A stretch of DNA of 64,000 nucleotides, from assembly GCA_950295325.1 (NCBI GenBank), contig OX485806.1, positions 53,191,169 to 53,255,168 on the forward strand, written 5' to 3'. Position numbers and translations under genes: made by a program. Of the stretch, positions 14,419 to 58,607 are shown piece after piece. Under the pieces are notes generated by a model. That model had not been told where the DNA came from and did no database searches. It was given only the letters and a program-made list of their open reading frames with translations. Origin of the DNA: Polytrichum commune (lineage: Eukaryota; Streptophyta; Polytrichopsida; Polytrichales; Polytrichaceae). Every line of letters starts with the position of its first letter. Position 1 is the stretch's first letter.

Positions 14419-14423
14419 TGTTG

Positions 14424-17790: not shown

Positions 17791-17897
17791 TGTCGTGTAA
17801 ACTAAGATCGTTAAACACAACAGATCGAGTGTCGTTGTCAACATCAATTAGCAAAATAAAATAACAAACTAAAATGCTAAACAACCACCTCTTCAAG
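17791..17897 (+). repeat. 107-bp direct repeat outside the left LTR of element A
   Basis: Matches 18,332-18,438 at 106 of 107 positions by eye (one G/A difference). The two copies bracket the 431-bp LTR at 17,899-18,329 with only 1-2 bp of spacer. This is far longer than the 5-bp duplication normally made by an LTR integrase. Confidence 0.9.
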
Positions 17898-17898
17898 A

Positions 17899-18329
17899 TG
17901 AGGGTTTTTCTCTCCAAGCTTAAGAAACTAAAATGTCTTCTTACAAAGCTTAAGAAACTCTGAAATTCACACACAAGAGTCAAGCTATCTCTCACTCCAC
18001 GAAGGGAGAATCCAAGAGTGCAAGTGGTGGAGAAAGAATGCAAAGGCTTTACTCATAATCTACTACACCATAGCCATGAGAAAGCAACAACAAGCTCTCT
18101 CTCTCTCAAAACACACTCACAAGACTTGACTTGACAACAATGGCAAGTCAAGAGGCCTTCCTCTCCATACAACCCCAATCCTATGTGGAGTTCATCCATG
18201 GAGTGGATGAACAACTAACTAGGACTCCCAATGGAGTCCGTTACTCATCCCAACACACATGGACTCCTAATGGAGTCCATTTACTCCTAAATTGACATAA
18301 CTTAGCCCCCGATGTCACCTCACGTGACA
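17899..18329 (-). mobile_element. Left 431-bp LTR of element A (3' LTR)
   Basis: Begins TGAGGGTTTTTCTC and ends CACGTGACA on the plus strand (TG...CA). It equals 38,008-38,438 in length and orientation, with about five to seven differences. The two copies bracket the methyltransferase element, hence the reading as its LTRs. Doubts: no matching 5-bp target duplication at the outer edges, no clear polypurine tract, and the copy is flanked by a 107-bp duplication. It could be an independent solo LTR of the same family. Confidence 0.7.
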
Positions 18330-18331
18330 GC

Positions 18332-18438
18332 TGTCGTGTAAACTAAGATCGTTAAACACAACAGATCGAGTGTCATTGTCAACATCAATTAGCAAAATAA
18401 AATAACAAACTAAAATGCTAAACAACCACCTCTTCAAG
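18332..18438 (+). repeat. 107-bp direct repeat inside the left LTR of element A
   Basis: Inner copy of the repeat at 17,791-17,897. It lies between the 3' LTR and the integrase/PHD ORF, where a 3' untranslated region would be. Confidence 0.9.
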
Positions 18439-18762
18439 TGCCCCCACTAGCAGATAAGGAGCCCCTCCAATCGGCTAGGAACAAATACACTCATTGGTAG
18501 AGTTGTTGAACATGATGAAGTTGTTGCTACATCTATACATATTTAATTGGTTAGTAGTAATCGAAGGAATTAAACTCGTGATTGACAAAGTAATCCAAGA
18601 ACTGTAGGCTGGGTGCAATGTGACCCCCATCCTTAATCGCCTTCAACAATTAATGTTGAATTCTTGGATAACTCTTTCAATGTGGTCTTAATTCCATAAA
18701 ATTTCCAACCAACTAAATAACAACTTCACCACTAAAACATGTGGTAAACATCCACAAAATTT

Positions 18763-19269
18763 TCAATCATGACCATTAACGGCCACGGAATGAGAGGCTT
18801 TCCGACGACGAGGACAAACCCAATTGCCAGAAGGAAGAATAAAAAGGGGAGGTGTCAAACATGCCATGTGCCATCCACGTTGACATTGGTCGCACAATAA
18901 CATTGTTGCAGCTTCTTTCTTCTCTCCACAAACATAACAAGGCAGACCCTGTGGTACAACCGCCAACTCGGGATGCATAGAGCCGTCGATGGGAAGGTGA
19001 CATGGAGTACAATTCTTTGAATGCTCACGACATTCCCGTCCATCTTTGCCTTCAAGCAATAATATACCACTTGGCAAGACATCTTTTACCCGCAAAATCG
19101 TGCGCCCAGCCTTGACATCCAATGTCGTAGGCGCCTCCCGTTGCAAGTAAACATAATCCCCCTTGGAAAATCTACGAACCTGAGGTCGATAAGCTCCACT
19201 GCGGATCCGGGCATACCGTAATGTATCACGATGTTGAGCAATATTTAAGTTCTCCATAGCCATAGGCAT
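18763..19269 (-). pseudogene. Element A polyprotein C-terminus: integrase tail and PHD finger
   Basis: Continues the integrase frame after an in-frame TAA at 19,276. Residues about 1-75 resemble an integrase C-terminal SH3-like fold (FSKGDYVYLQREAPTTLDVK, then VLPSGILLLEGKDG). Residues 111-152 carry a PHD-type zinc pattern: C111, C114, C126, C129, H134, C137, C152, with the aromatic W133 and W150 in the usual places. The eighth ligand expected at 155 is Arg (CPRR rather than CPRC), so the second zinc site is damaged. PHD fingers bind histone H3 tails; at the end of an integrase one could steer insertion as chromodomains do in chromoviruses. That role is inference. The ORF ends just before the 3' untranslated region. 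Confidence 0.8.
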
Positions 19270-19275
19270 GGCCTT

Positions 19276-20214
19276 TTAGAAGAACGTTGCTCGGTCATGA
19301 AGACATTGAGCCCAAACATCTGGATCATCCAAGTTTACCACGGGAGCCAATTTCTCTCGCACCGAGCTAGGTAAAATTGGTTCCCGTCCATGCAAGAGTT
19401 GGTAAGGACTATAGGATGCCAAAGATGCTTGCCTGCTGAAACGATAACCCATTGCTATCCATGGTAACATCAAGTCCCAATCGCGATGGTTGCCATGAAG
19501 CAATCCATACTTCCGCAAACCGCGCTTAACCGTCTGAACAACTCGTTCAGCTAAGCCATCTGCCTCAGGGTGATCTCTGGAAGTTGTCCGATGATCAATA
19601 AAAACCTTGGTACACAAAGCCTCGAAAGATCCAAGGAATTCTCTCCCTTGATCCGTCAACACCTCTGCAGGTGCTCCAAACCGTGCCAAAACTCGATCAA
19701 GAAATGCCATAGCCGCCAATTCTGAGGAATTTTGGGGAAGAGCCACGAGTTCAATCCACTTACTAAAATGCTCCACCATCACAAGCACATACTTGGAACC
19801 ACATGGAGTGATAGTAAGCGGTCCGACAAAATCCAAAGACCAACAATATCCCAAGCCCATAATAGGTAAAGGCTGAAGTTGAGGTGACAAAGTATTAAAA
19901 CTTGATATGACCCGGTCACATACTTCACACCGAGAAACATAAGTGGCAACCTGTTGATACATACCAGTCCACCAATATTGGTTGCGCAACATAGAGTGCG
20001 TCCTTCGCACTCCAAAATGTCCAAGCTCCTCGTGCATTCGCCGCACCAAAGAAGCTATTTGATCTGGCCTTGGAACGATGCGCCTCGTTCCGTTCGGCCA
20101 TACACGAAATAACAAACTATTTGCCCAACGAAACCTTGTTATCCGGTGACTAACTTTATCTCGCTCCGTAGCAGATAGTCGAAGAGGAAATATCCCTTGT
20201 TGAAGTTTGTACAA
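19276..20214 (-). pseudogene. Element A integrase
   Basis: Same frame as the preceding reverse transcriptase/RNase H segment, after an in-frame TAG at 20,230. The zinc-binding head shows H61 and H66 (HEELGH) and C96/C99 (CEVC). The catalytic core has D128 (WSLDFVG), D188 (VLTDQGREF) and E223 (DGLAERVVQ), giving the D,D-35-E spacing of retroviral-type integrases. These enzymes insert the cDNA copy into host DNA in the nucleus. All three acidic residues are kept, so the core was functional until recently. The segment stops at TAA 19,276, cutting off the C-terminal tail and PHD finger. There is no start codon of its own: the true product is part of the polyprotein. Confidence 0.9.
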
Positions 20215-20229
20215 GACCGCCTGGTCTTC

Positions 20230-21825
20230 CTACACATCACTAACAACGAGAGATTTATCAACCTCCTCATCTTGTTCTTCTACAAGGATCTCAGCAGCCA
20301 ATCCCGACATCATTGTGAGATATATGGCAGCATGCCAACCCGGCACTGCCTCATGATCACAATCTCCATGCCACCTGGCTCCAGTTAAATCCTCATCTGA
20401 AGGACTTGGATTGCGAAACAATCCGTCTGCATCCAAGTTGGCAATTCCTGCTCGGTGAACAACTTCAAAGTCATATTCATGAAGTAACAATGCCCACCTA
20501 GCAAGTTTCCCGGTGAGCTTATCTGATTCCATAAGCCATTTTAAAGGCTGATGATCAGTCACCAAAGTGAATTTTTGCCCATACAAATAAGGTCGAAAAT
20601 GTGCAATGGCCCAAACGGCCGCCAAGGCCTCGCCTTCATAAGAAGAATAATTAGATTCAGCACTATTATTGCTTCTAGATGCATAAGCCACCACATATTC
20701 TTTTCCCTCTTCATCTTTCTGTGTCAATACCGCTCCCAATCCCACTGCACTCCAATCCGTGTGCAATTGAAAAGCTCTAGACACATCCGGGCGTCGAAGC
20801 ACTGGCGCTGAACCGAGCCTCTGCTTCAATGTATCATATGCATGTTGTTGTTCCCGACTCCAAATCCATGGTTGGTCTTTCCCCGTAAGAATGGTAAGAG
20901 GTTTGGCAATCAAACTAAAGTTTTTGACAAACCTCCTATAATAATTTGCCAATCCTAGAAATGCACGAAGCCGTTGTACATCACTAGGTGCGGGAATTTT
21001 GTGCAAAGCATCCACCTTCGCCTGTTGCACACCAAGACCGCCATGAACAATCATGTGGCCTAAATAGGGCAATTGATCATGAAAAAACTTACATTTTTCA
21101 TGATGTAAACGGAGTCCCCACCGTTGAAGTCGTTCAAATACCGCTTGTAAATATCTCACATGATCCTGTGGACTATTACTAAAGATGATAACATCATCAA
21201 TGTAACATCTAGCAAACGGCAAACCAGCCAATAATTGGTGCATCACCCGCTGAAATTCAGGTGGTGCATTCTTAAGACCAAATGGCAGAAATTTCCAATG
21301 ATAAAGTTGATCCTTGCCATCTTTATCAATTCCCCAAAATGCGGTCTTCACCCGATCACCTAACAACAAAGGTAATTGGTGATAACCAGACCTCAAATTC
21401 AGAGTGCTGAAGATTCTAGAAAATCCCAGTGCATCAAACAACTCCTCCGGCATCGGCATTGGATATTGATCTGACTTGGTCTTGCGGTTGACTGGACGAT
21501 AATCACCACATATCCGTTTTTCCGTCCAGTTGCCAAAGATATCCTTCTTTGACGGCATAACCATGGCACAAGCATACTCTCCATTGGAGAGTTCAATCAA
21601 TTCCGCTGCCAATAACTCTTGACATCGAGTTTGAACACCCAACCTTTCAGAGGTACTAAGTCTATACGGCCGTCTGAAAATAGGGTGGTCGTCCTCGAGT
21701 TGAATACGAACAGGTTTACCTTTATATCCTTCAAGATCATGAAGACTAAAGGCAAAACAATTACGGTAAGAACGAATAAATACCCGTACCTTTCGTGCTT
21801 CGGCACCAGTAAGCTTTGGCCCCAC
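20230..21825 (-). pseudogene. Element A reverse transcriptase and RNase H
   Basis: About 531 codons in one open stretch. Reverse transcriptase covers residues 45-260, with the YIDD catalytic box at 208-211 and FLPFGLKNAPPEFQRVM before it. Motif A, normally FSTLDLRSGYHQ, reads FSTLNLRSGYHQ, so the first catalytic Asp is Asn143 and the polymerase should be dead. A connection region with LRAFLGLANYYRRFV follows, then RNase H with HTDWSAVG (D357), SYEGEALAAVWA (Glu) and LVTDHQPLKWL (D424). The type is Ty3/gypsy. Upstream, the same frame extends a little before the first ATG and meets a frameshift near 21.9 kb that separates it from the methyltransferase frame. It ends at TAG 20,230. Confidence 0.9.
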
Positions 21826-21905
21826 TTCAATTGGCCAATCGTTAGACTCCGTGGTTCCTTCTTCATAGAATGATTGCCACTTGGTGCCAGCATAGCCTGT
21901 GATTG

Positions 21906-22300
21906 CTAGTCCGTGGAGAGGGCAACACCTTTGGCCCCATCATCTGCATTTGAATCCAAATGCGTATCCTCTCCACTACAATCAGTTTGTGTAGCTAAAT
22001 AGCTACCCACATATGAAGTATCACCAAGAAATAGAAGTGGAAACATTTTATGGGCCTCCAACTTTCCAAAATCTTGGGCCAAAGCCGAAAAAACACGTTG
22101 GGCTCGAAGCTCTTCCGCAACATGAAGTTTCAAAGGAAATAATCCCTTGGTGTCATTGACCTCAATGTGATCCTTGGATTGCAGCTCCATTGCCCCCTGA
22201 CCATTGTTCTCTGCCCTCAGAGTAAGCAATTGGTCATCCATACGTTGTTGAGCAGCAAGACAAATTCCAATTATCCACACAATGCTATTAAGATCCATAG
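21906..22300 (-). pseudogene. Element A methyltransferase motif X and linker to reverse transcriptase (downstream of element B)
   Basis: This is the continuation of the ORF at 33,205-34,854 on the other side of element B. With B and one CTTGC removed, the codon split at the junction becomes GCT and the frame runs on as QAMDLNSIVWIIG, the likely motif X that closes a cytosine methyltransferase fold. The remaining roughly 110 residues are a linker rich in Asp and Glu with no motif I recognise. The frame ends at TAG 21,906, next to a frameshift, since the reverse transcriptase uses another frame. Confidence 0.8.
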
Positions 22301-22305
22301 CTTGC
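22301..22305. other. Target-site duplication of element B, left copy (CTTGC)
   Basis: CTTGC precedes the LTR start here and follows the other LTR at 33,210-33,214, exactly 5 bp and perfect. Confidence 0.95.
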
Positions 22306-24152
22306 TGTGAGGCCAAACCCCCCACCCTTAAGCGTCCGTAGTCCGAGTAGTGGGTTTGGGCTCACATTCCTCCGCGGTATTGGATTTGGACTTGGATGAG
22401 TCCATAGTGCAAGGTTCACCCTTCAAGTGGTCTTGGATTTAACTTTGGTCTTTGCTTCCTTTGTCTTGCCATCGCGAGAGTGCTCCACATTCTCCATTAA
22501 GTTGTGCACGTGGTTTATTTTTAAAGAGAGGATGCAAGTGTTAAAAAAAACACTATTCTCTATAGTCAATCTCAAATACATTTACTTGTGAAAGCCACAC
22601 ATAACACTAACTAGCATAATGTAACTAACTACTTGTCTATGAGCTAATTAGGTAGGCTATCTACTAAGCTCCTTCATGAACCCATCTCTTTACTTTCTAA
22701 TTACATAAACCTAGCTCCTTCATAAACCCAGCTCCTTCATAAACCCAGCTTCTTAGCTTCTAACTAAACAAACCCAGCTCCTTCATAAACCCAGGTCCTT
22801 CATAAACCCAGCTCTTTACTTTCTAACTAAACAAACCCAGCTCCTTCATAAACCCAGGTCCTTCATAAACCCAGCTCTTTACTTTCTAACTAAACAAACC
22901 CAGCTCCTTCATAAACCCAGCTCCTTCATGAACCCACAACTTTGTAGTTGTAATCCCCAACTACCTCACTAATTATTCAAGCCCTTAACTAATCTTCCTA
23001 CCTAATTTCCCTAATTCTACTAACAACCCCTTTCTAATCACACAATTCTTCTCTAATCCTAAAATCCTAAAATCCTAGAGAGGAGAGGGGGAGAGAGAAT
23101 TTCCTAACTTCACTAAGACTAACTAATCCACACAAGTATATTTTTGCACTCATCACAACATCAAGTGCTCAACTCTTAAACATGGAACTTGCAACCACGT
23201 GTATTCAAAACATGAACTTTAAGTACCACAAATTGGAATCATGAATTAACTTTAAAATCCTTCACGTCAACACTAATTCTACCAAGAGGTCAAGCCCTCT
23301 TCAAGGCTAACAAGCCTTGGCTCTCAAACTAAAAACTAAGCACACACATGTGCTCCAATATGGCTTCCCACACCCACACTTATAACTCGTGGGGTGCCTT
23401 GGAGCACAAAGGAAAGAGAGAGTGAGTGAGGGAAGAATGAGGGATTATATAGTAAGCTTGAGGGGGTGAGCACCCTCAAGGCTCACGATAAGCCCTTGAG
23501 ATTTCCTCCTACTTAGTAGGCGCCAATCCTATCTTCTAAGCCTTCCTCCCTCAAATGATCAACAAGGATCCTAATTCGAACATTTAACTAGCCTTGGCTT
23601 TCTACCTACCACACTTTACCAAACTTGGGATGCTTCAACCCAAACTTAGCCTCCTTCGCTTTCCGCCGCCATAACTTTCTCCCCTTACTTTCCCAAATCG
23701 TCGCTCACCACTCAATTCAAACCACGATGCTTAACTCGTGATTTGATTGGTGCTTTGAGAATTTGCTTATCCTCCACCTTGCATTCTTCCTTGGGCCTTC
23801 CCCATTAAGTGGCCATGATGAGGTGGTCCACTTGTGCGCTCCATGTGATCCTCCATTCATCCCAATTCGAAAGCACTTGCCTCTTGAGTCACTTTGGTTG
23901 TCTCCATCCATTTGTACTAGCCTACTCACTAACTACTCAATCCAAGTTCTCCTTACCTATCCTCATTCACTCAAATCCTTCCGAAGGTAAAAACACAATA
24001 ACAACTCACATCCTAGCCTCTTACAACATGGTACTTCTAAGACTAACATTTCACTCTTTTTATATTTTTGTGAAGTAACATGCTACTTCAAAGTGCATCA
24101 ACTAACGTTTCAAGGGTCTAAGACTAAATGTGGGCACCCTTTTGGGCTCACA
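22306..24152 (-). mobile_element. Element B left LTR (3' LTR, 1,847 bp)
   Basis: Plus-strand ends TGTGAGGCC...GGGCTCACA. Same length as the right LTR; I noticed two differences (C/T in CCGCGG versus CCGTGG, and T/A in GTCCATAG versus GTCCAAAG). Just inside, in element orientation, the sequence GGTCGCCAATTA adjoins the LTR and is shared with element C. A tandem array lies at 22,668-22,937. In minus orientation it carries the element's 3' end. Confidence 0.96.
22668..22937. repeat. Tandem array in the element B left LTR
   Basis: Repeated words CCCAGCTCCTTCATAAACC and TTTCTAACTAAACAAACCC form higher-order units of about 65 bp, roughly three to four times. The same array sits at the matching place in the right LTR. 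Confidence 0.9.
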
Positions 24153-24213
24153 TAATTGGCGACCATCGGGGGATGAATCCAAACATCTCTTGCTCCAAGG
24201 GTAAGTTGCCTAG

Positions 24214-27200
24214 TCAAGCTCGGTACTCCTTACATCTACATCCCGATGTACGGGTAGGAAAGAGCTCACCATTCAACGTTTCCAATTGAATTGAATTATT
24301 AGGAAAGACCTCATAGACAAGGTAAGGTCCTAACCATACCGCATCGAATTTCGCCGGAAATTCAAGCTTTCGTGCGTCTTGAATCATGACCATCATTCCC
24401 GGTGTTAGGGCCCTTCTCTTATGTTGTTTGTCGAAAGTAATCTTTCTCCTTCTTTGGATTGCCTCAATATGTTGAGCCGCCATTCTCCTCCCTTCGTCAA
24501 GTGCTTCCAAATCGGTGAGTCGATTTCGTAAGGATTGACTTTCGGTAAGTCTCGTACTCACGGCCACCCTAAGTGACTCGACTTCATATTCGATTGGTAG
24601 TGTCGCTTCAAGACCATAGACTAAGGAAAATGGTGTAGCACGCGTAGTTACCTTATAGGTTGTACGGTATGCCCAAAGTGCCGCCGTTAGTTTCGTATCC
24701 CAATCCCGCTTCGAGTCTATAACCGTCTTGCGTAGTATACTTACCAAAATTCCGTTAACCCTTTCCGTTTGTCCATTGGTTTGTGGGTGGTAGGGAGTAG
24801 TCTTCCGGTGATCAATTTTAAATTTCTCTGTCATCTCTCGAATCAAGTCATTCAAAAAGTGAGTACCCCTATCGCTTACTAGGATCTTCGGCACCCCGAA
24901 CCGCGAAATTATGTTTTCGTACATAAATGTTGCCGCGTGTTCCGCCGTGTCGGTCTTCACCGCTTTGGCTTCCGCCCACTTGGTGAGGTACTCGGTTGCC
25001 ACCACAATATATTTCATTCCTTTTGAAGATTGGGGATGGACCTCACCCACATAGTCGATGCCCCATTTTTCGAAAGGAATTAAGGGTAATGATACATGTA
25101 AAGGCATCTCCATTCTAAGGTCGTTTCGGACATACCGTTGGCAAGCGTCGCATTTCCTTACATAGTCATGGGCGTCCTTAAATAGTGTAGGCCAAAAGTA
25201 GCCCGCTCTAAGTATTTTTTGCCCGGTGAGTTGACCCGAGAAGTGACCGCCGCAAGCGCTATCGTGGCAAGCGATTAAAATCGCTTCAACCTCCGTTTTT
25301 GACACGCATCGTCGTAAAATACCATCGGACCCCCTTCTAAACAACCTATGGCCCACTACAACAAATTGCCTACTATTTACCCTCACCTTCCTTCTCTCTT
25401 CTTTTGTCCACTCTTTGGGCAACTTGTGGGTTGTTAGAAATTCCACTATGCCCGCATACCACTCCGGTGTAGAAGTGACCACAAAGAGGCTATCATCTAC
25501 TAACATATCATTTACCGGATTTTTTCCTATCTCCTCCGACAACCTAGACAAGTGGTCCGCTTGTAAATGCATACGACCCGGTTTATATTCCACCGTGTAG
25601 TCGAATTCTTCTAATAACAAAACCCACCTAGCTAACCTACCACTTAACTCCGCCTTGTTAATTAGATACTTGATAGCCATGTGGTCAACAAAAAATACAA
25701 CCGGGTTGCACATGAGGTAATGCCTAAACTTTTTAACGGAAAACACCATGGCTAGGCACTCCCTCTCCGTTGTAGAGTAGTTTCTTTCGGCGGGGGTCAA
25801 TTGCTTACTCGCATAAGCTATAGGTTGATCCTTCTCTTTTTCTCCCGTTGCTTGACAAAGCGCACTCCCTATTGCCACATTACTAGCATCACAATAGACG
25901 TGAAAAGGTTTACCCCAATTGGGTGGTATCAACACCGGATAGGTGCTCAACCTATCCCGCAATTCCTCAAAGGCTTTTTGACAAGCATCCGTCCACTCGA
26001 ATTTGACATCCTTTTTGAGCAAATGGGTAATGGGCACCGCTATCTTTGAAAAATTAGGAATAAGTTCCCGGTACCATCCCACATGTCCTAACAACTTAGA
26101 GATCCCCTTGGAATTGGTTGGAGTTGCCAAGTCGCTTATGGCCGCAATCTTATCCGGATCGGGTTCTCTACCTTTCTCACTAACAACATAACCCAACAAC
26201 ACTCCCTTATTCACTCCCAAAAATGTCTTATCCGGGTTCAATGCTAACCTCATCTTCCTACACCTAACCAATGCCTCCCTAACACAATGTAGGTGATCAT
26301 CCACATTACTTTGTGTGCTAAAATCGTCCACAAAGACGGTCATGGATTTGAACAACAAGTCGGTGAAGATATACATTACTAATCGTTGGAAAGTAGCCGG
26401 GGCATTACATAACCCAAATGGCATCACTACCCACACAAAAGTACCCCAAGGTGTAGTAAAAGCCGTTTTATGGATATCTTGGAGGGCTATGGAAATTTGA
26501 TTATAACCCGCATACCCATCCATAAAGGTATATCGCGAATGACCTCCAACCTCCTCAAGCAACAAGGTGATAAAAGGTAAGGGGAAGTGATCCTTTTGTG
26601 TGCACGAATTCAATTTCCTATAGTCGACACAAACCCTTAATTTCCCATTTTTTTTCTTTACTAAGACCATAGGAGAAACCCAATCCGTGATTTCCACCGG
26701 CTTGATAAACCCGGCCTTCAATAACCTTTCCAATTCCGCTTTCACCAACAATTGCAATTGAGGATTCATCCTCCTCTCCTTTTGTCTAATTGGCCTCGCC
26801 CCCGGAATTAAAGGAATCCGGTGCTCTACCATTTCCCTAGGAATTCCCTTAAGCTCATCGTAGGACCATGCAAAAGTATCACTAAACTCATCCACCAAAT
26901 TGCTATACTCCCTAACCTCTTTCTCCCCCAATTTGGAGCCCATCTTCATTTGTCGGGTTTTTCCATTCTTTAATTTCACATCCACGTACCGCCAATCCGC
27001 TTCCGACACATGTGCTTGTTCCTCTTTGTTCCGATACCAATCGGAAGGCACATTGGGGTAATCTTTCACATCTTGACCTACAACTATCCCCGTAGACGTG
27101 GTCTTGAAATGTAAAGGCTCCTCCAATTTCGATGACTCAATAATCACATCCTCCTCTTGAGTCCCATCTACATGAATTAAACTAACCTCACCCTCTTCCA

Positions 27201-28830: not shown

Positions 28831-28953
28831 CGGGTAAGGGACATTAATTACTTTGTCCGGTTGGCGACACGTATCCGAGGGATGACTTCCTCCACAATTG
28901 CTACAATTAAACTCTTGACCTTCGGACCAACATTGTCCTTGAGCGTGCCACCT

Positions 28954-29358: not shown

Positions 29359-29388
29359 AAGAGGTGCCGGTTCCCTAACCGCTAAAGG

Positions 29389-30453
29389 TCAGGGACCGGT
29401 GTCCACAATGGCATATGGAATTTGGTTCTCATACTTAGCGGGTTCTACCGCTACCACCCTAGGGCGTATGGGGATGAATTGTGGGATCAATTCATCCTCC
29501 CTTCTCCATAGCCTTTCGTGATCTTTATCCAAGTTTTCAATATCTCTAGCCGCACGCTTGGCATCCGCCAAGGTCAAGGGATTCCTTTCTAGAACACCCC
29601 TAATAGTTCCGGACTTAAAAAACCCTTGAATGAAAAATTGCTTTAGCGTGTCGTCGTTGAGCATGGTACCCACAAATCTAGTGCACACTAAATCAAACCT
29701 CCTAATGTAAGCCGAAATTTCTTCCTCCCTTCCTTGCTTCAATGACGACAATGCCCTTAATGCGGTACTTTGACCCACTTCCGGCCTAAATTCGTTAAGA
29801 AACTCCCTTTGTAATTGTTCCCATCCCCTAAAATGTCCCTCGGCATGATCCCGATACCATTCATAGGCTTCCCCCTCTAGAGTGGTAGGAAACCACACTA
29901 ACCAATAACCCGGGTCGGTTATGAGGGAGCTAGCCAACCGTTCGATATACCGTTCCATGTGCCGAGAGGGGTCCTCATCCTTGGTCCCATAAAATTTAGG
30001 GAGATGAGATGGCATATCCATCGCCGCTAAATTTTGTGGAACCACAATTGGTAGGCCTCTTGGCCTAACCAATGGGTCTATTGGAGGTATAGGAGGTATG
30101 GGCGGAATTGGGGGTATGGGTGGTGGATCCATCCCCCGTTCCTCGGCCATGGTGACCGGTGAACTATTCAACAATCCCCTATCAACTTCTACCGGGAATT
30201 CTTCTCTAAGTGTGTAATTTTCCGAAGAAGTTTCACCACTCAATTTGGAGGGAGTGATCTCCTCTTCAAGTTGAGCTCCAAGTTCTAAGGTGTCTAGAAT
30301 TAACCTAGTCCTAGGTTCGACGTTCAAACAACTCTCTATTCTAACATTATCTTGTTCTAATCTATCACTGATTTTAGAGGACCGCCTCTTTCGAGTAGAT
30401 TTCTCTAGTCCTACTATCAAACTTGGTTTTTGTGAGCGAGTCCTACCTTGCAT
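29389..30453 (-). CDS. Element B gag capsid region, 354 codons
   Basis: Begins MQGRTRSQKPS and is strongly charged for 100 residues. Then comes a proline-isoleucine run (repeated PPIPPIPP near residues 114-128) and a retrotransposon gag domain with LVWFPTTLEGEAYEWYRDHA, WEQLQREFLNEFRP, EEISAYIRRFDLVCTRF and the LTLADAKRAARDIENL helix. Gag forms the virus-like particle in which reverse transcription occurs. The frame ends at TGA 29,389 in a DTGP context and continues in frame on the far side. The leader between LTR and start is about 0.9 kb. Confidence 0.92.
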   Translation of the reverse strand: MQGRTRSQKPSLIVGLEKSTRKRRSSKISDRLEQDNVRIESCLNVEPRTRLILDTLELGAQLEEEITPSKLSGETSSENYTLREEFPVEVDRGLLNSSPVTMAEERGMDPPPIPPIPPIPPIPPIDPLVRPRGLPIVVPQNLAAMDMPSHLPKFYGTKDEDPSRHMERYIERLASSLITDPGYWLVWFPTTLEGEAYEWYRDHAEGHFRGWEQLQREFLNEFRPEVGQSTALRALSSLKQGREEEISAYIRRFDLVCTRFVGTMLNDDTLKQFFIQGFFKSGTIRGVLERNPLTLADAKRAARDIENLDKDHERLWRREDELIPQFIPIRPRVVAVEPAKYENQIPYAIVDTGP

Positions 30454-31362
30454 TCCATAAGAATCGATCGACCCTCACTTGACCACACATAATCCTAGCA
30501 ATTCCCCTCTTAATATTTTCACTTGTCTTGGTGTGGTTATAATTTTTTTAGGAGGTGAGGAAAAGAACCTGCAAGCCCACTTAGGTGAAAGAATCCCAAT
30601 AGGGGATAGGCATGTTCATGTTAATTTTTTGGTTAAGTCGGAGCATCACCTCCGCACCTTCCCGCAAATTAACACTCACCACAATACCGATTGTGAGGGG
30701 GTGACCTTCCGAGTAGATTATGTTAAAAGTCGAGGCTTCACCCTTCAACTTCTCACACCATCCACAATTCGGGAATTACCCTCTACAACGGATAACAACA
30801 ATCACGAGTACAAAAGGCATTCCTTAATTAGTTAATGAGTTCACTTTGAAGAAATAAACATACCTTGAGCAATCGCATCCCCCTGTGAGTTAGCACTCCC
30901 CTCAATCGTGACTCAATGTAACAACACCATAAACTTTGTGAAATATTAATTTAATCTAGAGCATGAAATGACAACTCCCAAAACTTTGAGACTCACCCCG
31001 AGGTGAGTGTCAAAGTTCAATGTCCTAAGGTGAATTTACCCTCTAATGTTTTAATGAGCTACTCGGTTATAGGTTCCTTTTAAGTTCTTAGCAAATCCCC
31101 AAAAAGGTTGAGGACGTACCTTCGCCGCGCTCCTTCCTCAAAAATGAATTTGCGTAATTGACAATGCAATTCATTCCAAGGAATAGTTGAAATACAATGA
31201 ATTCAAATGTAACCCAAAGAGAGAATACTTACCGAGTTTCGGGTGCTCCTTCCCTTCTCTCAAGTTTGTGTCTCCAATTTTTCCTAGTTGCCTCCAAGTC
31301 TCCTAGTCGCCTCCAAGTCTTGTAACTACCTTCCGCTTCGCTCCCGGCGGACGCACCAATTA
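30454..31362 (-). promoter_or_regulatory. Element B 5' leader with primer-binding site
   Basis: Non-coding leader between the 5' LTR and gag. On the minus strand, about 4 bases after the LTR end, is TGGTGCGTCCGCCGGGAG (31,358 down to 31,341), which starts with the TGG complementary to a tRNA CCA end and is the likely primer-binding site. I do not assign the tRNA. The rest shows no ORF I trust. Confidence 0.6.
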
Positions 31363-33209
31363 TGTGAGGCCAAACCCCCCACCCTTAAGCGTCCGTAGTC
31401 CGAGTAGTGGGTTTGGGCTCACATTCCTCCGTGGTATTGGATTTGGACTTGGATGAGTCCAAAGTGCAAGGTTCACCCTTCAAGTGGTCTTGGATTTAAC
31501 TTTGGTCTTTGCTTCCTTTGTCTTGCCATCGCGAGAGTGCTCCACATTCTCCATTAAGTTGTGCACGTGGTTTATTTTTAAAGAGAGGATGCAAGTGTTA
31601 AAAAAAACACTATTCTCTATAGTCAATCTCAAATACATTTACTTGTGAAAGCCACACATAACACTAACTAGCATAATGTAACTAACTACTTGTCTATGAG
31701 CTAATTAGGTAGGCTATCTACTAAGCTCCTTCATGAACCCATCTCTTTACTTTCTAATTACATAAACCTAGCTCCTTCATAAACCCAGCTCCTTCATAAA
31801 CCCAGCTTCTTAGCTTCTAACTAAACAAACCCAGCTCCTTCATAAACCCAGGTCCTTCATAAACCCAGCTCTTTACTTTCTAACTAAACAAACCCAGCTC
31901 CTTCATAAACCCAGGTCCTTCATAAACCCAGCTCTTTACTTTCTAACTAAACAAACCCAGCTCCTTCATAAACCCAGCTCCTTCATGAACCCACAACTTT
32001 GTAGTTGTAATCCCCAACTACCTCACTAATTATTCAAGCCCTTAACTAATCTTCCTACCTAATTTCCCTAATTCTACTAACAACCCCTTTCTAATCACAC
32101 AATTCTTCTCTAATCCTAAAATCCTAAAATCCTAGAGAGGAGAGGGGGAGAGAGAATTTCCTAACTTCACTAAGACTAACTAATCCACACAAGTATATTT
32201 TTGCACTCATCACAACATCAAGTGCTCAACTCTTAAACATGGAACTTGCAACCACGTGTATTCAAAACATGAACTTTAAGTACCACAAATTGGAATCATG
32301 AATTAACTTTAAAATCCTTCACGTCAACACTAATTCTACCAAGAGGTCAAGCCCTCTTCAAGGCTAACAAGCCTTGGCTCTCAAACTAAAAACTAAGCAC
32401 ACACATGTGCTCCAATATGGCTTCCCACACCCACACTTATAACTCGTGGGGTGCCTTGGAGCACAAAGGAAAGAGAGAGTGAGTGAGGGAAGAATGAGGG
32501 ATTATATAGTAAGCTTGAGGGGGTGAGCACCCTCAAGGCTCACGATAAGCCCTTGAGATTTCCTCCTACTTAGTAGGCGCCAATCCTATCTTCTAAGCCT
32601 TCCTCCCTCAAATGATCAACAAGGATCCTAATTCGAACATTTAACTAGCCTTGGCTTTCTACCTACCACACTTTACCAAACTTGGGATGCTTCAACCCAA
32701 ACTTAGCCTCCTTCGCTTTCCGCCGCCATAACTTTCTCCCCTTACTTTCCCAAATCGTCGCTCACCACTCAATTCAAACCACGATGCTTAACTCGTGATT
32801 TGATTGGTGCTTTGAGAATTTGCTTATCCTCCACCTTGCATTCTTCCTTGGGCCTTCCCCATTAAGTGGCCATGATGAGGTGGTCCACTTGTGCGCTCCA
32901 TGTGATCCTCCATTCATCCCAATTCGAAAGCACTTGCCTCTTGAGTCACTTTGGTTGTCTCCATCCATTTGTACTAGCCTACTCACTAACTACTCAATCC
33001 AAGTTCTCCTTACCTATCCTCATTCACTCAAATCCTTCCGAAGGTAAAAACACAATAACAACTCACATCCTAGCCTCTTACAACATGGTACTTCTAAGAC
33101 TAACATTTCACTCTTTTTATATTTTTGTGAAGTAACATGCTACTTCAAAGTGCATCAACTAACGTTTCAAGGGTCTAAGACTAAATGTGGGCACCCTTTT
33201 GGGCTCACA
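31363..33209 (-). mobile_element. Element B right LTR (5' LTR, 1,847 bp)
   Basis: The 5' LTR in element orientation, equal in length to 22,306-24,152 and almost identical. It should carry the element's promoter, which I cannot locate by eye. The tandem array recurs at about 31,725-31,994. The perfect CTTGC duplication follows at 33,210. Confidence 0.96.
31725..31994. repeat. Tandem array in the element B right LTR
   Basis: Matches the array at 22,668-22,937 at the corresponding place in the LTR. Confidence 0.9.
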
Positions 33210-34854
33210 CTTGCCCCAATAGGAAACGTCTCTGACCTTCCTGAAGCCCGTGAGCAGCCGTGGTACCTGTAAGAAAACCCATAGCGCGTTCTCGCTCATC
33301 TGGCGTAGGCTCATCATGAGTTTGGGATTTTGAATCCCAAACCATGCCAGGTCCACGAGATCGAAATGCAAAAGACTGTGGATATGTCACAAAAGTAGGT
33401 AGTGCACCTCTCGGAATGCCCACCTTGTTAATTAATGCAAATGGCAAGGTGTCATCCTTGGTAACTGCCAAGGAAACACGATGATCATCTAAAATGTCAT
33501 CCACCTTGCGATCCATAAGGCGGGGAATGCGGGCAATCGCCGCTGAAAGCACTCGAGGTGATACCAAGTCGGTCCAAAACCAACGAGGCCGATGAGCAAA
33601 GGATCCCAAAGATGCAGCATCCAGAAATGTTGGAGTACCCAGAATTTGGTTAATGTACTCACCATCCTTCACCACTTTGTGCTGGGTATCACCCAATAAT
33701 GGTACATTTTCGAAAATGTACCCTGGCGGAGTTGATTGGTGGGTAAACCACCATTGCGTCAATCGCATCAAATCCGCAAACAAACTAGACCTAGGATCAT
33801 CCAAACCCTGGCCAGTTCCTGGCCGCGAATGGCCTTGACAAGGCCATCCTGCAATAATCAAATCCACGTGGCCCAACCTTCTCAAATCCTCATCACTAAT
33901 CATAGTGACATCTTGAGGAAGTTGACCACAACATCCATGAATGGCAGAGGCTGACAATTGTGCGGGGTATCTCAACAACAATTGTTGGATGTGGTGTCGG
34001 ACGGCTCTGTTGGCTGCATACCCATTGTCCACATGAATATATCGCCAAACTGTAATTCCAGCTTCCAACACTGCCGCCAAACCTGTGCCAATGCCTCCAA
34101 AGATCTCCACAAGGACAATACCTTCAGGTGATGGTTGCCAACGAATGGGTTGAGCAAAAGAAAATGAGGATGAAGTTGGAGGTGCCTCTCCAAGCTCCAA
34201 ATCCGCTACAATGTGTTGACAATGGTCGGATAACTCCTTAGGAGTTCGCCATGGTGGAGGTGGATCCTTGAAATGTCGAGCAGGAATTTGAAAAGATGGT
34301 AAAAATTGTTGTTCTGCCGCATTACAAGTGTAGTCCATTGTTTCCTCCAATAAAACTGGAGCACAAGGCAAATCTGCAACTAAACCGCTGCAACCAAACA
34401 TTGCCTCCGCAATCATTGTCATAGCAGTGGCTGCAAATGTGACGGGAATAAATACCTTCCTGCCATCTCCAATGGACCATCCCGGTCTAATCCATGCCTC
34501 TTCCGTCCAATTATCCAAACCAAAGCCAAGTGGGTAAAGAGCTTGTTGACCAACAAGTATATCATAGTTGGTAGCATTAGTAACAACACACTTCATTGAC
34601 AAATGAGTGTAAGTAGGCCCTGCCCGCACATGAAAAATCAAACGTAGAGGTGCCTTGGTGTAACCTGTTGCACGTTCAGTGCCCCCTACTGAAGTCACAA
34701 TAGTGAATGGACAAGGATCCAAGCTTGCTGGCGTCAATCCAAGACTGTCAGCAAGTCCTTTGCCAATCATAACCGGTTGAGCACCGAAATCCATCATAAC
34801 TCTCAGTGGTGTAGCATGGATAGAGGGCATATCCGTGCGTGAAACGACAAACAA
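33205..34854 (-). pseudogene. Element A protease and Dnmt3-like cytosine-5 DNA methyltransferase (interrupted by element B)
   Basis: A 549-codon open stretch. Residues 15-125 are a retropepsin-like domain: MMDFGAQPVMIG (Asp22, DFG where DSG/DTG is usual) and YDILVGQQALYPLGF. Residues 245-549 are a cytosine methyltransferase in linear motif order: motif I IFGGIGTGLAAVLEAG (252-258 core), motif II RYIHVDN, motif IV GWPCQGHS with catalytic Cys339, motif VI YIFENVPLL (Glu382), motif VIII AHRPRWFWTDL (Arg422, Arg424), and ERERAMGF before RRFLLGQ. The spacing and words of motifs I and VIII resemble Dnmt3 more than Dnmt1/CMT, and the order is not permuted as in DRM. Such enzymes methylate cytosine using S-adenosylmethionine. 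The last codons belong to element B's LTR; motif X is at 22,300-22,220. Stops precede it at 34,858 and 35,113. Confidence 0.92.
33210..33214. other. Target-site duplication of element B, right copy (CTTGC)
   Basis: Perfect match to 22,301-22,305. Confidence 0.95.
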
Positions 34855-34857
34855 AGA

Positions 34858-35382
34858 TTAATCTTTCATCAGCCGTACAACTCCAGGTTGCAAATTATGC
34901 CGTTCGCGAGCAGGCCTTGCAGAAATGTCTGCAAGATATGCCGCTCCCGACACATAATTCGAAAATGACGTATCCACTGCTGAAATTGATGCTGGAGGAA
35001 TATCAGTTTGCTTACCAAAAGCAATGATCGCCGCATCCGCAAGACTCGCTCGCAAATTGGCTAAGTCCTGCACCTCCTCAGCCACAGGTACGTCAACCAC
35101 AGCTTGGGATACTTAAAGGGATGGCAAATCCGCCTTACCTTCTAACATTCTCCCAGCTAAATGAAAAACTGCAGCAGGCTTGAAATCCGAAGCCATATAC
35201 TCCGAACCCGAGAAAATTGGCATATGGAGAATTTTATATGCCAATGCCTGCGTAACATCCTTCGAGATGGAATCCCCATCTCTCAAAGGTACAGGGTTTT
35301 TAGCCCCAACAACAGTGGTGTCTACCAATCCAAATGAAAGAGGTAAACGTGCTTGACCAATTTGATCAGCTGGTCCTCGTTG
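34858..35382 (-). pseudogene. Element A linker between gag and protease (two open segments)
   Basis: Same frame as gag and protease, broken by TAA at 35,113 and TAA at 34,858. The translation includes VVGAKNPVPLRDGDSISKDV, FKPAAVFHLAGRMLEG, then VPVAEEVQDLANLRASLADA and an Ala/Ile-rich segment. No catalytic motif is visible; it is probably a spacer or maturation region of the polyprotein. Confidence 0.6.
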
Positions 35383-36198
35383 CTACCACCACTCGTTGCT
35401 ACCACCACTCGTGGAGGCCACCGCATCTGCCAATGTTTGTGAGCGAGTAGAAGCCGCCGCCACCACCTCTCCAGCTGCTCCAAACATATATATGTGCGAA
35501 CCCGAGGTGCCACCACCCACATGCGGCTCAGAAATTTGAGCAAAAGATGCAGAAGATTTGAGCTTTTGCTCAAGCTCTGCCACCTTAGCCTCAAGACTCT
35601 GCTCCTTTGGAGACTTTCCAGTGACATAACTGGCAGGCCGCATCTCAGGATGAAGTTGGAAACAATGATCCACATCATGATTAGTGCCACCACAATGGTT
35701 ACACTTCAATTGTCTCTTCTTAGAATTGTCCCCTGCCTTTACTGGTTCCATCTTTTGTTTTAATTTTTCCAAAGGCTGAGTTTTCTTCTTCTTAGGACAA
35801 TTGGGATCATTCTTCGAATGGCCAGCTTCTCCACAACCCCAACAATGCAAAATCTTTTGCTCTTTGACGGGTTGAGTCTTAGCTAAACTACTAGTAGCTG
35901 TGACAATTCTTCTTGGTTTCGGACTCTCTGTCATCCAAGATACCATATCCGTGGCATCATGTTGGCAAAGAGCCCGATCACATCTCTCAACCACGGCAAA
36001 CGCTTGTGCAAGCGTAGCTCGGCCCTCGTAGTCGAGGATAATCCGAGGTGATGCCAACTCAAGTAGCCGCTTGTCAATCTTAAACAAAAAGATTTTAACA
36101 AGCTGACTCTCAGCAAAAACACCTCCCGACTCCACAGCAAATCGCGTGAGTCGCGTATACATGGTCTGTGGAGTATCATCCTTCTCTCGGCGGAAATC
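35383..36198 (-). pseudogene. Element A gag C-terminal half with two zinc knuckles
   Basis: In frame with the upstream gag segment apart from TAG at 36,199. It begins with a gag-type helical region (RLTRFAVESGGVFAESQLVK, then LASPRIILDYEGRATLAQAF). Two Cys/His groups follow: CWGCGEAGHSKNDPNC and CNHCGGTNHDVDHC. The second is a canonical CX2CX4HX4C knuckle; the first has a longer last spacing. A predicted coiled coil (EQSLEAKVAELEQKLK) follows. Zinc knuckles bind element RNA during packaging. The frame ends at TAG 35,383 beside a short direct duplication of TTGCTACCACCACTCG. Confidence 0.85.
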
Positions 36199-36892
36199 CT
36201 AGATGCGCTGCATCTGGTCTCGCCGAAACCCACCATACTCCACTTCCAAATGTGCGACAAATTCAGTAAGGGGATTAAACGGAGGTGGTGGACCAACAGC
36301 CGTCAATGCTGCCTGTGTAGCACGTGCCACCCGTGAAAGGGTTGCCGTGCTACTGCTAGCCACCATTGGCCCAAGTGCCAGTTCCGTGTCCTTAGACTCC
36401 GCCGGCGATTCCTCCTCCTTTAAGGTGGGTGGAGCTAAGGTAGCAACCGCCCCATCCTTAAGGGCTGAAATGAACTCAACCCGAGCCTCCCAATACTGCT
36501 CCACCTCCCGAATTTGTCGTTGATGACCCTCTGTCCAGCGTTCATAAGTTTGGAGTGCCTCATACTCCAAATGTTGAGGCATACCAATCATTGAAATTGG
36601 AAGACCTTTGGCGTTTCTCCTTAATCCAGGTACGAAACCGGAGTTTCCAATCGGGCAAGGAAATGCCCCCAGCTCGACCTGAAAACCGATCACGCACTGA
36701 ATTGTGGCGATCGTCCTCCATTTCGTCGAACGTGCCGACACTCCAAATCCGAAGCCTACTAGTAGTGTCCAACGCCGAAATAGGCTCAAAAGCCTCGTTG
36801 GTATCTACCTCTGGCTCAAGATTTGTGGTATGCACGTCCTCCAAGTAATCTGGTGATGGAGATCGATAATATCGGCTCCTAATTTGCACCAT
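36199..36892 (-). pseudogene. Element A gag N-terminal half, frameshifted
   Basis: The start is MVQIRSRYYRSPSPDYLEDV at 36,892. This frame runs to about 36,560 and then the better continuation (MIGMPQHLEYEALQTYERWT, followed by an acidic helical region and an Ala/Thr-rich segment) lies in a second frame that continues to TAG at 36,199. A single-base indel near 36.56-36.62 kb explains the change. The content (charged helices, then TEFVAHLEVEYGGF) is gag-like but I cannot match it to a named subfamily. Confidence 0.7.
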
Positions 36893-37005
36893 AAAATAAT
36901 CACTTGAGTACCTGCACCTGTTGCGGGCTATTTAAATGGCAATCCCTTGCCAAATGCCAAGTGTTTATGCCCCCAGAATTCCAAAATTGTGCAAAGGTTT
37001 GAGAT

Positions 37006-37440
37006 TGGTAATTAAAAAGAAAAATCAGCGTTGAAATGGCTCATTTCCAAGGTGATTATGGACTCCAATCAACAAACTAAGTGCACCAATGGACTCCTAG
37101 GAAGATTTCACACAAATTAGGCTCAAATTTCACTCCGTTCGGAGTTAATTTGCTCCCAAAAACAAAAATCAGCGTTGAAATTAATAAATTCAGCAATGAT
37201 TTTGAATTCCAATCAACAATCCAATTACACCATTGGATTCCTTGGCAAATTTCACTCCGTTCGGAGTTAATTTGCTCCCAAAAACAAAAATCAGCGTTGG
37301 AATTAATAATTTTAGCAATGATTTTGAATTCCATTCAACAATCCAATTACACCATTGGATTCCTTGGCAAATTTCACACAAGATAGGCTCAAATTTCACT
37401 CCAATCGGAGCTAGTATGCCCCCAAATTTGAACCTCAAAG
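37006..37440. repeat. 122-bp tandem repeats in the element A leader
   Basis: TTTCACTCCGTTCGGAGTTA begins at 37,128 and again at 37,250, and the matching position recurs at 37,372, a period of 122 bp. Words such as AAAAATCAGCGTTG and CCAATTACACCATTGGATTC recur in each unit; flanking units are more diverged. The array lies between the 5' LTR and gag, where packaging signals normally sit. Confidence 0.9.
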
Positions 37441-37565
37441 TTTGTGAAAATTGGATGCCAAGTTTGAAAGGTGAAAGTAAAAATGTGAAAATAAAAATAA
37501 AAAATAAAAAATAGTTTTTTTAATTAAACAAAACCAAAAAGAAAAAGAAAAAGGTAAGGGCTTAC

Positions 37566-37655
37566 CTTACCTGCCTGCCAGGGCCTGGCTGGCTGGCGCC
37601 CGGCCGACGCCCGCCCCCGGCCCGGGATCTGCCGCCGCCCGGGATTCAGAATTGG
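37566..37655. other. GC-rich block in the element A leader
   Basis: About 90 bp of mostly C and G (CCTGCCTGCCAGGGCCTGGC and onward) in otherwise AT-rich surroundings. It contains several short self-complementary stretches (GGCCGACGCC-like, CCCGGG twice). It may be a structured RNA leader element. Confidence 0.6.
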
Positions 37656-38007
37656 AGCTCCAGCCAAAATCCGGAGCGCAACCAAAATTAAAACTAAATC
37701 GGATTTTGATTGTGGTTTATGTTTGTATTTAAATTAAACTTTGCTTCACAATTTGCAAGCAAGAAAATGTGATTTGAGAATCTCGAAACTAAATGGAATC
37801 TCAAGATTCAAACATCAACAATTGAAGAAAATACAAGAGACAACAAAAGAAAAATGGGAAGATTTCTCTCAAAATCTTCTTGAGGATTGCAAGAAATGAC
37901 GAACTAAACTTTCAAACACTTGTATCACTCCTTTGCTCTCATTACTGGGCCATTCTAGCTCATAAATACAACCAAAAATGAAAAATTTGAACAATTGTTG
38001 TCAAGTA

Positions 38008-38438
38008 TGAGGGTTTCTCTCTCCAAGCTTAAGAAACTAAAATGTCTTCTTACAAAGTTTAAGAAACTCTGAAATTCACACACAAGAGTCAAACTATCTC
38101 TCACTCCACGAAGGGAGAATCCAAGAGTGCAAGTGGTGGAGAAAGAATGCAAAGGTTTTACGCATAATCTACTACACCATAGCCATGAGAAAGCAACAAC
38201 AAGCTCTCTCTCTCTCAAAACACACTCACAAGACTTGACTTGACAACAATGGCAAGTCAAGAGGCCTTCCTCTCCATACAACCCCAATCCTATGTGGAGT
38301 TCATCCATGGAGTGGATGAACAACTAACTAGGACTCCCAATGGAGTCCGTTACTCATCCCAACACACATGGACTCCTAATGGAGTCCATTTACTCCTAAA
38401 TTGACGTAACTTAGCCCCCGATGTCACCTCACGTGACA
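38008..38438 (-). mobile_element. Element A right LTR (5' LTR, 431 bp)
   Basis: Same ends (TGAGGG...GTGACA on plus) and length as 17,899-18,329. It contains several inverted repeats: 38,234-38,261, 38,299-38,321, 38,331-38,348, 38,368-38,389 and 38,422-38,438, with stems of 6-9 bp. The sequence directly inside in element orientation (TACTTGACAACAATTG) does not start with TGG, so the primer site is not evident. Confidence 0.75.
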
Positions 38439-57294: not shown

Positions 57295-57296
57295 TT

Positions 57297-58600: not shown

Positions 58601-58607
58601 AGTGGGG

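What the first reader, a model, noticed from the sequence alone, without database searches (positions are those of the whole stretch)
17899..38438. A Ty3 retrotransposon that carried both a DNA-methylation writer and a histone-reader domain
Seen: in one polyprotein frame between 431-bp repeats lie gag, protease, a cytosine methyltransferase with motifs I, II, IV (Cys339), VI (ENV), VIII (HRPR) and X, then reverse transcriptase, integrase and a PHD finger. Known: captured methyltransferases in LTR retrotransposons have been reported in charophytes and dinoflagellates, and chromoviruses use chromodomains to choose targets. Inference: this lineage combined a writer (methylate its own DNA or its surroundings) with a reader (PHD on H3) in one mobile unit, perhaps to survive silencing or to settle in chosen chromatin. 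The methyltransferase motifs are intact although the element is dead.
Basis: partly seen in the sequence, partly recalled or inferred. Interest (0 to 1): 0.92.

Follow-up and report, generated by a model that had tools for sequence, protein, structure and literature searches.

The report
Retrotransposon carrying DNA-methylating and histone-reading domains
A plant jumping gene with very young copies in this genome carries its own DNA-methylating enzyme and a histone-reading domain, a pairing also seen in related elements from environmental DNA, so a mobile element may write and read the chromatin marks that control it.

Summary
The core observation holds. The window has a broken Ty3-type element (really 17791-38438, minus strand) encoding gag, protease, a DNMT3-type cytosine methyltransferase, RT, RNase H, integrase and a C-terminal PHD finger. 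A younger Ty3 element (22306-33209) splits the methyltransferase at motif X. The family is young: of 20 copies fetched from this genome (picked for long open frames), 8 of 14 with both A repeats have no mismatch between them. Methyltransferase and PHD occur together at 34 of 34 loci examined. Metagenome proteins pair both domains in two orders; Marchantia and Sphagnum proteins show the methyltransferase, with PHD not seen there. DNMT3 capture by Gypsy elements was known (2018); the writer-reader pairing I did not find in print. Activity, targeting and benefit are untested, and constraint on the methyltransferase is weaker than on RT.

The parts
17791..38438 (-). whole outer element (9.7 kb plus a nested 10.9-kb insertion)
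   Evidence: ends shared with other copies; TGTCAC...ACGACA termini
38007..38438 (-). repeat A1 (432 bp, 5' end)
38238..38250 (-). stretch of A1 complementary to the primer-binding site (predicted self-primer)
   Evidence: 13-nt perfect complement, 0 of 200 shuffles
37994..38006 (-). predicted self-priming primer-binding site, directly after A1
35383..36804 (-). gag with zinc knuckles, two reading frames broken by stops in this copy
   Evidence: ORFs, weak zinc-knuckle matches below cut-off; open in other copies
34450..34857 (-). aspartic protease region, start of the PR-MTase frame
   Evidence: PF13650 0.00066, below curated cut-off; limits approximate
33210..34116 (-). DNMT3-type cytosine methyltransferase, motif I to start of X
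   Evidence: Pfam 1e-10, DNMT3A 6.8e-7, model and Foldseek
21909..22305 (-). rest of the methyltransferase (motif X) and ORF1 tail
   Evidence: continues AMDLNSIVW after the nested insertion
21906..21908 (-). UAG followed by CAAUCA (readthrough-type context) between ORF1 and ORF2
   Evidence: 21 of 21 copies incl. this one fit UAG-CARYYA
20230..21939 (-). reverse transcriptase and RNase H (frame shifted against ORF1 in this copy)
   Evidence: RVT_1 4.9e-28, RT_RNaseH 1.1e-38
19276..20229 (-). DDE integrase
   Evidence: Integrase_H2C2 2.7e-17, rve 2.6e-14
18763..19275 (-). integrase C-terminal part plus PHD finger (PHD at about 18808-18939)
   Evidence: PF00628 1.2e-10; PDB matches
18332..18438 (-). 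repeat B1, directly after a G-rich tract
   Evidence: tract seen in L012, L025, L027
18326..18337 (-). B1/A2 junction ACGACA-GC-TGTC, palindromic, like a joined pair of integrase ends
   Evidence: same in 16 of 20 copies (15, L027), the window and L083
17898..18329 (-). repeat A2
   Evidence: 6 mismatches to A1
17791..17897 (-). repeat B2 (3' end)
   Evidence: 1 mismatch to B1 over 100 bp
22306..33209 (-). nested younger Ty3 element, LTRs 22306-24152 and 31363-33209
   Evidence: 2 mismatches in 1847 bp, 5-bp duplication CTTGC, gag-pol domains

Best explanation
It is one broken member of a young family of Ty3-type retrotransposons that carries a DNMT3-type DNA methyltransferase and a PHD finger as standard parts. 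Shown by sequence: two ORFs in one frame, gag-PR-MTase, then UAG-CARYYA, then RT-RH-IN-PHD; A-ORFs-B-A-B ends; 4-bp target duplications; a primer-binding site complementary to the element's own A repeat. Inferred: the RNA starts in A and primes its own reverse transcription. Occasional readthrough yields about Gag-level writer and less integrase-reader. cDNA of the form B-A-ORFs-B-A is joined into a circle and opened by integrase at the palindromic B/A junction. The PHD, of the unmodified-H3 type, helps tether integrase to chromatin without active-promoter marks, and the methyltransferase marks the cDNA or fresh insertion, so that the new copy matches silent chromatin and is tolerated. Together they would act like the two halves of host DNMT3 (reader of unmethylated H3K4 plus writer; that host function is recalled).
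For: Domains; DNMT3 fold; catalytic Cys in 70 of 72 MTase rows, 2 with a gap there; 12 of 20 picked copies with both ORFs open at near full length (L023 has a frame change near the end of ORF1); UAG-CARYYA in 21 of 21, the second codon changing between Leu, Ser and Pro while YYA stays; 4-bp duplications in 17 of 17 readable copies, the window's imperfect; self-priming pairs of 13-15 nt in 15 of 17 testable copies and in the window, with different but complementary letters in three subfamilies and in L083; MTase and PHD together, at least in part, at 34 of 34 loci; constraint between subfamilies and in shared changes; PHD near UHRF1, BAZ2, DPF, BHC80 and ATXR5, with Gly at the cage-Trp place in 118 of 122.
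Against: No activity, expression, methylation or chromatin data. The MTase evolves faster than RT; pairwise dN/dS within sub1 is 0.56 (RT 0.10) and sub1 MTase singletons look neutral. Changes in the PHD within subfamilies are too few to judge. KnitGypsy-Dnmt3 showed no activity in yeast, which its authors call inconclusive. CpG depletion of the element (0.66-0.72) is no stronger than in the rest of the window (0.56). The MTase looks degenerate in two Volvox proteins, and Pfam does not find it in one of them (P0133) or in P0125. Three readable copies have a short A-ORFs-B form. Circle opening is inferred from repeat order alone. PHD matches include an H3K4me1 complex (Ehd3).
Confidence: 0.6

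Rival explanations
1. The methyltransferase and PHD are separate, loosely kept passengers: PHD is an old integrase tail that binds H3 for integration, and the MTase is slowly decaying or serves only in trans, with no joint function.
For: MTase dN between subfamilies is 0.277 against 0.059 for RT; sub1 MTase singletons look neutral (28 N, 9 S) and so do protease singletons (10 N, 4 S); the ORF1 tail is loosely constrained (dN/dS 0.65); Volvox MTase parts look degenerate; 31 of 185 proteins are RT-RH-IN-PHD without MTase in the same frame, though in the moss type it lies in the other ORF.
Against: Constraint between subfamilies and in shared changes; catalytic Cys in all 70 rows with a residue there; MTase kept at two positions in two groups.
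Confidence: 0.25
2. Self-methylation only: the MTase methylates cDNA inside particles (as proposed in 2018 for dinoflagellate and Klebsormidium elements), and the PHD has nothing to do with it.
For: MTase lies in the Gag-level ORF ahead of the UAG, fit for packaging; dinoflagellate SymbioDIRS DNMT3s methylate CG de novo in yeast (PMC5890265).
Against: In the second group the MTase lies in Pol next to integrase; the PHD is present in nearly all 120 listed integrase relatives; no special CpG depletion.
Confidence: 0.3
3. Ordinary Ty3 element whose MTase and PHD frames are assembly or annotation chance.
For: None found; the window copy is broken.
Against: Open frames in independent copies, the same order in L083 from another assembly and in metagenome proteins such as P0057.
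Confidence: 0.01

Closest known systems
KnitGypsy-Dnmt3 of Klebsormidium nitens (de Mendoza et al. 2018, PMC5890265)
   Same: LTR Gypsy element with a DNMT3-type MTase; repeats arranged as in DIRS (A-coding-B-A-B); purifying selection on the MTase
   Different: The word PHD does not occur in its main text (figures and supplements unseen); MTase described in the Pol ORF, here in the gag-PR ORF before a UAG; descent from one capture not tested
SymbioDIRS-Dnmt3 and SymbioLINE-Dnmt of dinoflagellates (same paper)
   Same: retrotransposon-encoded cytosine MTase; DIRS-like repeats in the first
   Different: tyrosine recombinase or LINE machinery; unrelated element classes
Chromoviruses (chromodomain after integrase; Tcn1 and Tf1/sushi)
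   Same: Ty3 pol order; chromatin reader at the integrase C-terminus; self-priming as in Tf1/sushi/Tcn1 (PMC6317226, passages)
   Different: PHD in place of chromodomain; extra MTase; A-B-A-B ends
Host DNMT3A/B (ADD reader of unmethylated H3K4 plus MTase)
   Same: nearest fold and a zinc-finger H3 reader in one system (ADD function recalled)
   Different: reader and writer lie on two parts of a transposon polyprotein, split by a stop

Membership tests
KnitGypsy-Dnmt3 type | Ty3/Gypsy pol with DDE integrase | tested here: met
KnitGypsy-Dnmt3 type | DNMT3-type methyltransferase with catalytic motifs | tested here: met
KnitGypsy-Dnmt3 type | DIRS-like repeat order A-ORFs-B-A-B | tested here: met
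   16 of 20 copies and the window; 3 readable copies are short A-ORFs-B, L026 has no A2 and no readable 5' end
KnitGypsy-Dnmt3 type | MTase in the Pol ORF | tested here: not met
   MTase lies in ORF1 with gag and PR, before UAG; the Klebsormidium figure was not seen
KnitGypsy-Dnmt3 type | common descent of MTase and pol with the Klebsormidium element | not testable with these tools
   no Klebsormidium protein among the listed hits, whose candidates were partly capped
Ty3 (Metaviridae) | order PR-RT-RH-IN, TG..CA ends, 4-5 bp target duplication | tested here: met
   (17 of 17 readable copies, 4 bp)
Chromovirus | chromodomain after integrase | tested here: not met
   Pfam shows PHD and no chromodomain at E 0.1
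Tf1/sushi-type priming | primer-binding site complementary to the element's own RNA 5' region | tested here: met
   15 of 17 testable copies, window, L083; true RNA 5' end not tested
DIRS order | tyrosine recombinase, no target duplication | tested here: not met
   DDE integrase, 4-bp duplications
TMV-type readthrough | UAG followed by CARYYA | tested here: met
   21 of 21 plus L083; rule recalled; readthrough itself not tested
H3K4me0-type PHD | no aromatic-cage Trp, similarity to BAZ2, BHC80, UHRF1, ATXR5 | tested here: met
   cage rule recalled; binding not tested

The most novel reading that the evidence does not exclude
An old clade of Ty3 elements of the green lineage made its own chromatin-state kit by carrying a DNMT3-type writer and an unmodified-H3 reader, keeping them through at least one move of the writer within the polyprotein. 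It integrates with a DDE integrase from a two-LTR circle opened at an internal palindromic site, a route held to be a dead end for retroviruses (recalled).
Probability: 0.3. Interest if true: 0.9.

Novelty: new variant of a known kind. Interest (0 to 1): 0.76.

Why it matters
Transposons are usually the targets of DNA methylation. A family with very young copies that carries both a methylation writer and a histone reader makes it testable whether mobile elements write their own silencing, and whether doing so protects them. The host has copies without any mismatch between their A repeats and sister subfamilies, so methylation maps, small-RNA data and integration maps can answer it directly. 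The repeat order also offers a case for integration from circles by a DDE integrase.

Tried and rejected
Rejected: plain LTR element with 431-bp LTRs (the copies share about 107 bp beyond the repeat); ribosomal frameshift between the ORFs (suggested by the window copy, but other copies have one frame with UAG); a structured element 3' of the stop (folding energies 1.5 and 2.0 sd below and 0.3 sd above shuffles in three copies: not convincing); chromodomain (none). The viral-contig scan gave 17 loci with weak matches (27-44% over short stretches), judged from the table only. Crude motif regexes missed motifs; the alignment columns replaced them.

Led nowhere: host identity. Seven contigs hold 406.1 of 407.8 Mb (lengths); seven chromosomes would fit polytrichaceous mosses, which is recalled and not tested. 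Whether the host has MTase-less Ty3 relatives of this clade did not complete, because the genome search with the MTase and RT queries was never served. In ten paper searches I saw no paper on an MTase plus PHD in one LTR element, judged from listings and the passages below; subscription papers are mostly absent from the library. Papers: PMC5890265 read in parts 1-3 of 7 plus a term search; PMC12344493, PMC3350952 and PMC6317226 only as found passages; others only as listings.

Bias and slips: the 20 copies are those with the longest open frames of 123 matches, so they say nothing on how many copies are intact. Only 61 of 123 MTase matches and 61 of 150 PHD matches had a listed partner; of the 89 PHD matches without one, 14 were examined, one is the window, 74 were not. 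In one search the group called IN holds 28 rows, one of which (P0059) is an upstream-type protein; the correct count is 27. In one search the printed 3' flank of L009 belongs to a false second hit; its true flank is. In one search L013 failed the priming test because its A end was miscalled (its PBS is seen), and L028 matched only 9 nt; L021, L024 and L026 had no readable A start. In one search one anchor matched L027 at a false place.

For this the odds of the novel case went from 0.35 to 0.30 and interest from 0.78 to 0.76.
Full report
What is in the window. On the minus strand lies a Ty3-type element whose parts, in order, are gag pieces with zinc knuckles, protease and cytosine methyltransferase, then (after a nested insertion) the methyltransferase tail, RT and RNase H, integrase, and a PHD finger. 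The MTase piece is nearest to DNMT3A among solved sequences (6.8e-7); its model is confident (pLDDT 93.6, pTM 0.90) and the 50 listed Foldseek matches are all from DNMT3 entries. A second, younger Ty3 element with its own gag and pol, 22306-33209, sits inside motif X; its 1847-bp LTRs differ at 2 sites and it is flanked by CTTGC on both sides. The window copy is also broken by stops and frame changes.

Other copies. The window lies in a 407.8-Mb genome, 406.1 Mb of it in seven contigs. PF00145 gave 123 scored matches there and the PHD piece 150, both lower bounds. I fetched 20 copies, those of the 123 with the longest open frames. They fall into three subfamilies: sub1 (11 copies, plus the window element), sub2 (8) and sub3 (L027). 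In 12 of the 20, ORF1 (1356-1386 aa) and ORF2 (1045-1048 aa) are both open; one of these, L023, has a frame change near the end of ORF1.

The two ORFs are joined by a leaky-stop signal. In 20 of 20 copies and the window, ORF1 ends in TAG followed by CAATCA, CAATTA, CAACCA or CAGCCA, and the related contig L083 has TAG CAATCA. All fit UAG-CARYYA, the TMV-type readthrough context (recalled). The second codon changes between Ser, Leu and Pro while the YYA pattern stays, so the letters rather than the amino acid seem to be kept. The methyltransferase therefore belongs to the ORF1 product and the PHD to the readthrough product.

The ends are unusual. 16 of 20 copies and the window read A-ORFs-B1-A2-B2, the order that the 2018 paper reports for KnitGypsy-Dnmt3 and for DIRS elements. 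A is about 295-435 bp by subfamily and B about 107 bp in sub1. The B1/A2 junction reads ACGACA-GC-TGTCA in these 16 copies. 17 of 17 copies with both ends readable have a perfect 4-bp target duplication outside TGTCA...ACGACA; the window copy's is imperfect (CTTT, CCTT); three copies (L021, L024, L026) had no readable 5' end. Three of the 17 (L009, L011, L019) have a short form that ends at B1, and L026 also lacks A2. A1 and A2 show no mismatch in 8 of 14 copies in which both could be compared, with 1-3 gaps in some; the other six have 1, 2, 1, 1, 2 and 10 mismatches, the window copy 6.

Self-priming. Directly after A1 lies a 13-15 nt site perfectly complementary to a stretch inside A in 15 of 17 copies with a readable A start and in the window; no shuffle of 200 did as well in these. 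The two failures are L013 (A end miscalled) and L028 (9 nt, 3 of 200 shuffles). The letters differ between sub1, sub2, sub3 and L083 but stay complementary, which is strong evidence for Tf1-type self-priming. A G-rich tract lies just before B1 in L012, L025, L027 and L083. By primer sites, the LTR is thus B-A, whereas the integrated ends are A-start and B-end. A two-LTR circle B-A-ORFs-B-A opened at one B/A junction gives exactly the long form, and a one-LTR circle or a cut at both junctions the short form; this is inference.

Writer and reader go together where examined. All 20 copies have both. Of 37 PHD matches in frames of 1000 aa or more, 23 had a listed MTase partner. For the other 14 I fetched 1.5 kb at the expected place: 13 show the MTase (L055 and L056 only partly) and in the 14th it is split by about 7 kb of inserted DNA. 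Over the whole capped lists only 61 of 150 PHD and 61 of 123 MTase matches had listed partners; 74 PHD matches remain unexamined. Even the window's own MTase is missing from the list of 123, so the list is incomplete.

Selection. Between sub1 and sub2, dN/dS is 0.106 for MTase (dS 2.6, near saturation), 0.029 RT, 0.023 RNase H, 0.089 PHD, 0.65 for the ORF1 tail; for gag, protease and integrase dS was saturated. Pairwise values within sub1 and sub2 are 0.56 and 0.23 for MTase, 0.10 and 0.07 for RT, 0.64 and 0.60 for PHD (50 codons). Changes shared by two or more copies show constraint in the MTase (sub2 N 19.5, S 33.5, P 6e-9; sub1 N 6, S 6, P 0.043). Singletons are constrained in sub2 (50.5 N, 47.5 S) but look neutral in sub1 for MTase (28 N, 9 S, ratio 0.97) and protease (10 N, 4 S), while RT-RNase H singletons are constrained (15 N, 16 S, 0.26); PHD changes are too few to judge. 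So the MTase is kept over longer times but is less tightly held than RT, as expected if it can be supplied in trans, or if it matters less.

Relatives. Protein searches gave 32, 34 and 378 hits, the last listing 120; the first two scored only a capped set of candidates. MTase relatives include Marchantia polymorpha and Sphagnum proteins, some joined to RT (P0024, P0053); no PHD was seen in those listed. Integrase-PHD relatives include Volvox and Haematococcus. In the 185 proteins, two orders occur: PR-MT-RT-RH-IN-PHD (P0057, 2358 aa, has all in one frame) and RT-RH-MT-IN-PHD (19 proteins, plus shorter ones). Pfam finds the MTase in P0057 and P0049 (first order) and in P0140 and P0173 (second), but not in P0125 or in the Volvox protein P0133. 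In a tree of 72 MTase domains, the 27 of the second order form one side of a branch with support 100; in a tree of 53 pol sequences, the 16 of the second order group with one other row, support 99. Both are quick trees with midpoint roots, and the Volvox proteins are in neither. A single moss MTase finds all 27 at E 3e-30 or better in that set of 72, and mean identity across the two orders is about 38% against about 22% to DNMT3 in Foldseek alignments. One retrotransposon MTase family, moved once within the polyprotein, is the simplest reading; host DNMT3 genes were not included, so two captures of related genes are not excluded. The catalytic Cys is present in 70 of 72 (2 gaps), the Glu of motif VI in 71 of 72, and motif IV varies from WPC to WEC. 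L083, filed in a cyanobacterial MAG, is an independent relative with MTase, PHD, the same stop context and the same junction.

PHD zinc ligands are in 121-122 of 122 relatives, and the place of the cage Trp of H3K4me3 readers is Gly in 118 of 122 (the rule is recalled). Of 87 solved sequences matched, the best include PHF12, CHD4, WSTF, DPF2, KDM5-type, ATXR5, KMT2D, KAT6A, PHF21A, UHRF1, AIRE and BAZ2. The model of the integrase end plus PHD is fair (pLDDT 83.7, pTM 0.53); its top Foldseek rows are multi-domain PHF1 matches of about 14 A rmsd, and the close single-domain ones are UHRF1, DPF, BAZ2, BHC80 and ATXR5, some solved with unmodified H3, plus Ehd3 with H3K4me1.

Known and new. DNMT3 capture by a Gypsy element is known from Klebsormidium (PMC5890265). 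A survey of plant LTR elements (PMC6317226) has neither PHD nor methyltransferase in its main text and names the Tcn1 and TAR lineages for self-priming (passages). A 2025 study mentions DNMT3 in retrotransposons as previously reported (PMC12344493, passages). The writer-reader pairing, the two orders, the UAG placement and the priming and junction anatomy I did not find in print, within the searches named in Tried and rejected. Function remains unproven.

Noticed in passing
L083 (CADCWO010000201.1, 1-9285): A contig filed in a cyanobacterial MAG is a relative of this plant element, probably eukaryotic contamination; its ends overlap by exactly 127 bp, so it is a circular contig, either a collapsed repeat or a real circle.
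   Followed up: partly
P0008: A protein named as from Candidatus Obscuribacterales is also of this retrotransposon family, probably contamination.
   Followed up: no
P0119 and P0133 (Volvox): The MTase region before integrase seems degenerate, without a clear PCQ motif, while integrase and PHD remain.
   Followed up: no
window 22604-23006 and 31661-32063: The nested element's LTRs hold tandem 63-bp units.
   Followed up: no
window 36980-37367: Tandem units of about 122-144 bp in the untranslated stretch before ORF1 of the outer element, also matched by L012.
   Followed up: no
window 12465-14424, 39710-41115, 54590-64000: Several diverged copies of another repeated element; two stretches 6254 bp apart are identical over 300 bp.
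   Followed up: no
window 58770-59966: Array of about 229-bp tandem repeats, 60-85% alike; by eye it recalls RNase H coding sequence, not tested.
   Followed up: no
relatives P0057, P0058, P0129, P0108 and others: Motif IV reads WEC instead of WPC: the proline before the catalytic cysteine is replaced by glutamate.
   Followed up: partly
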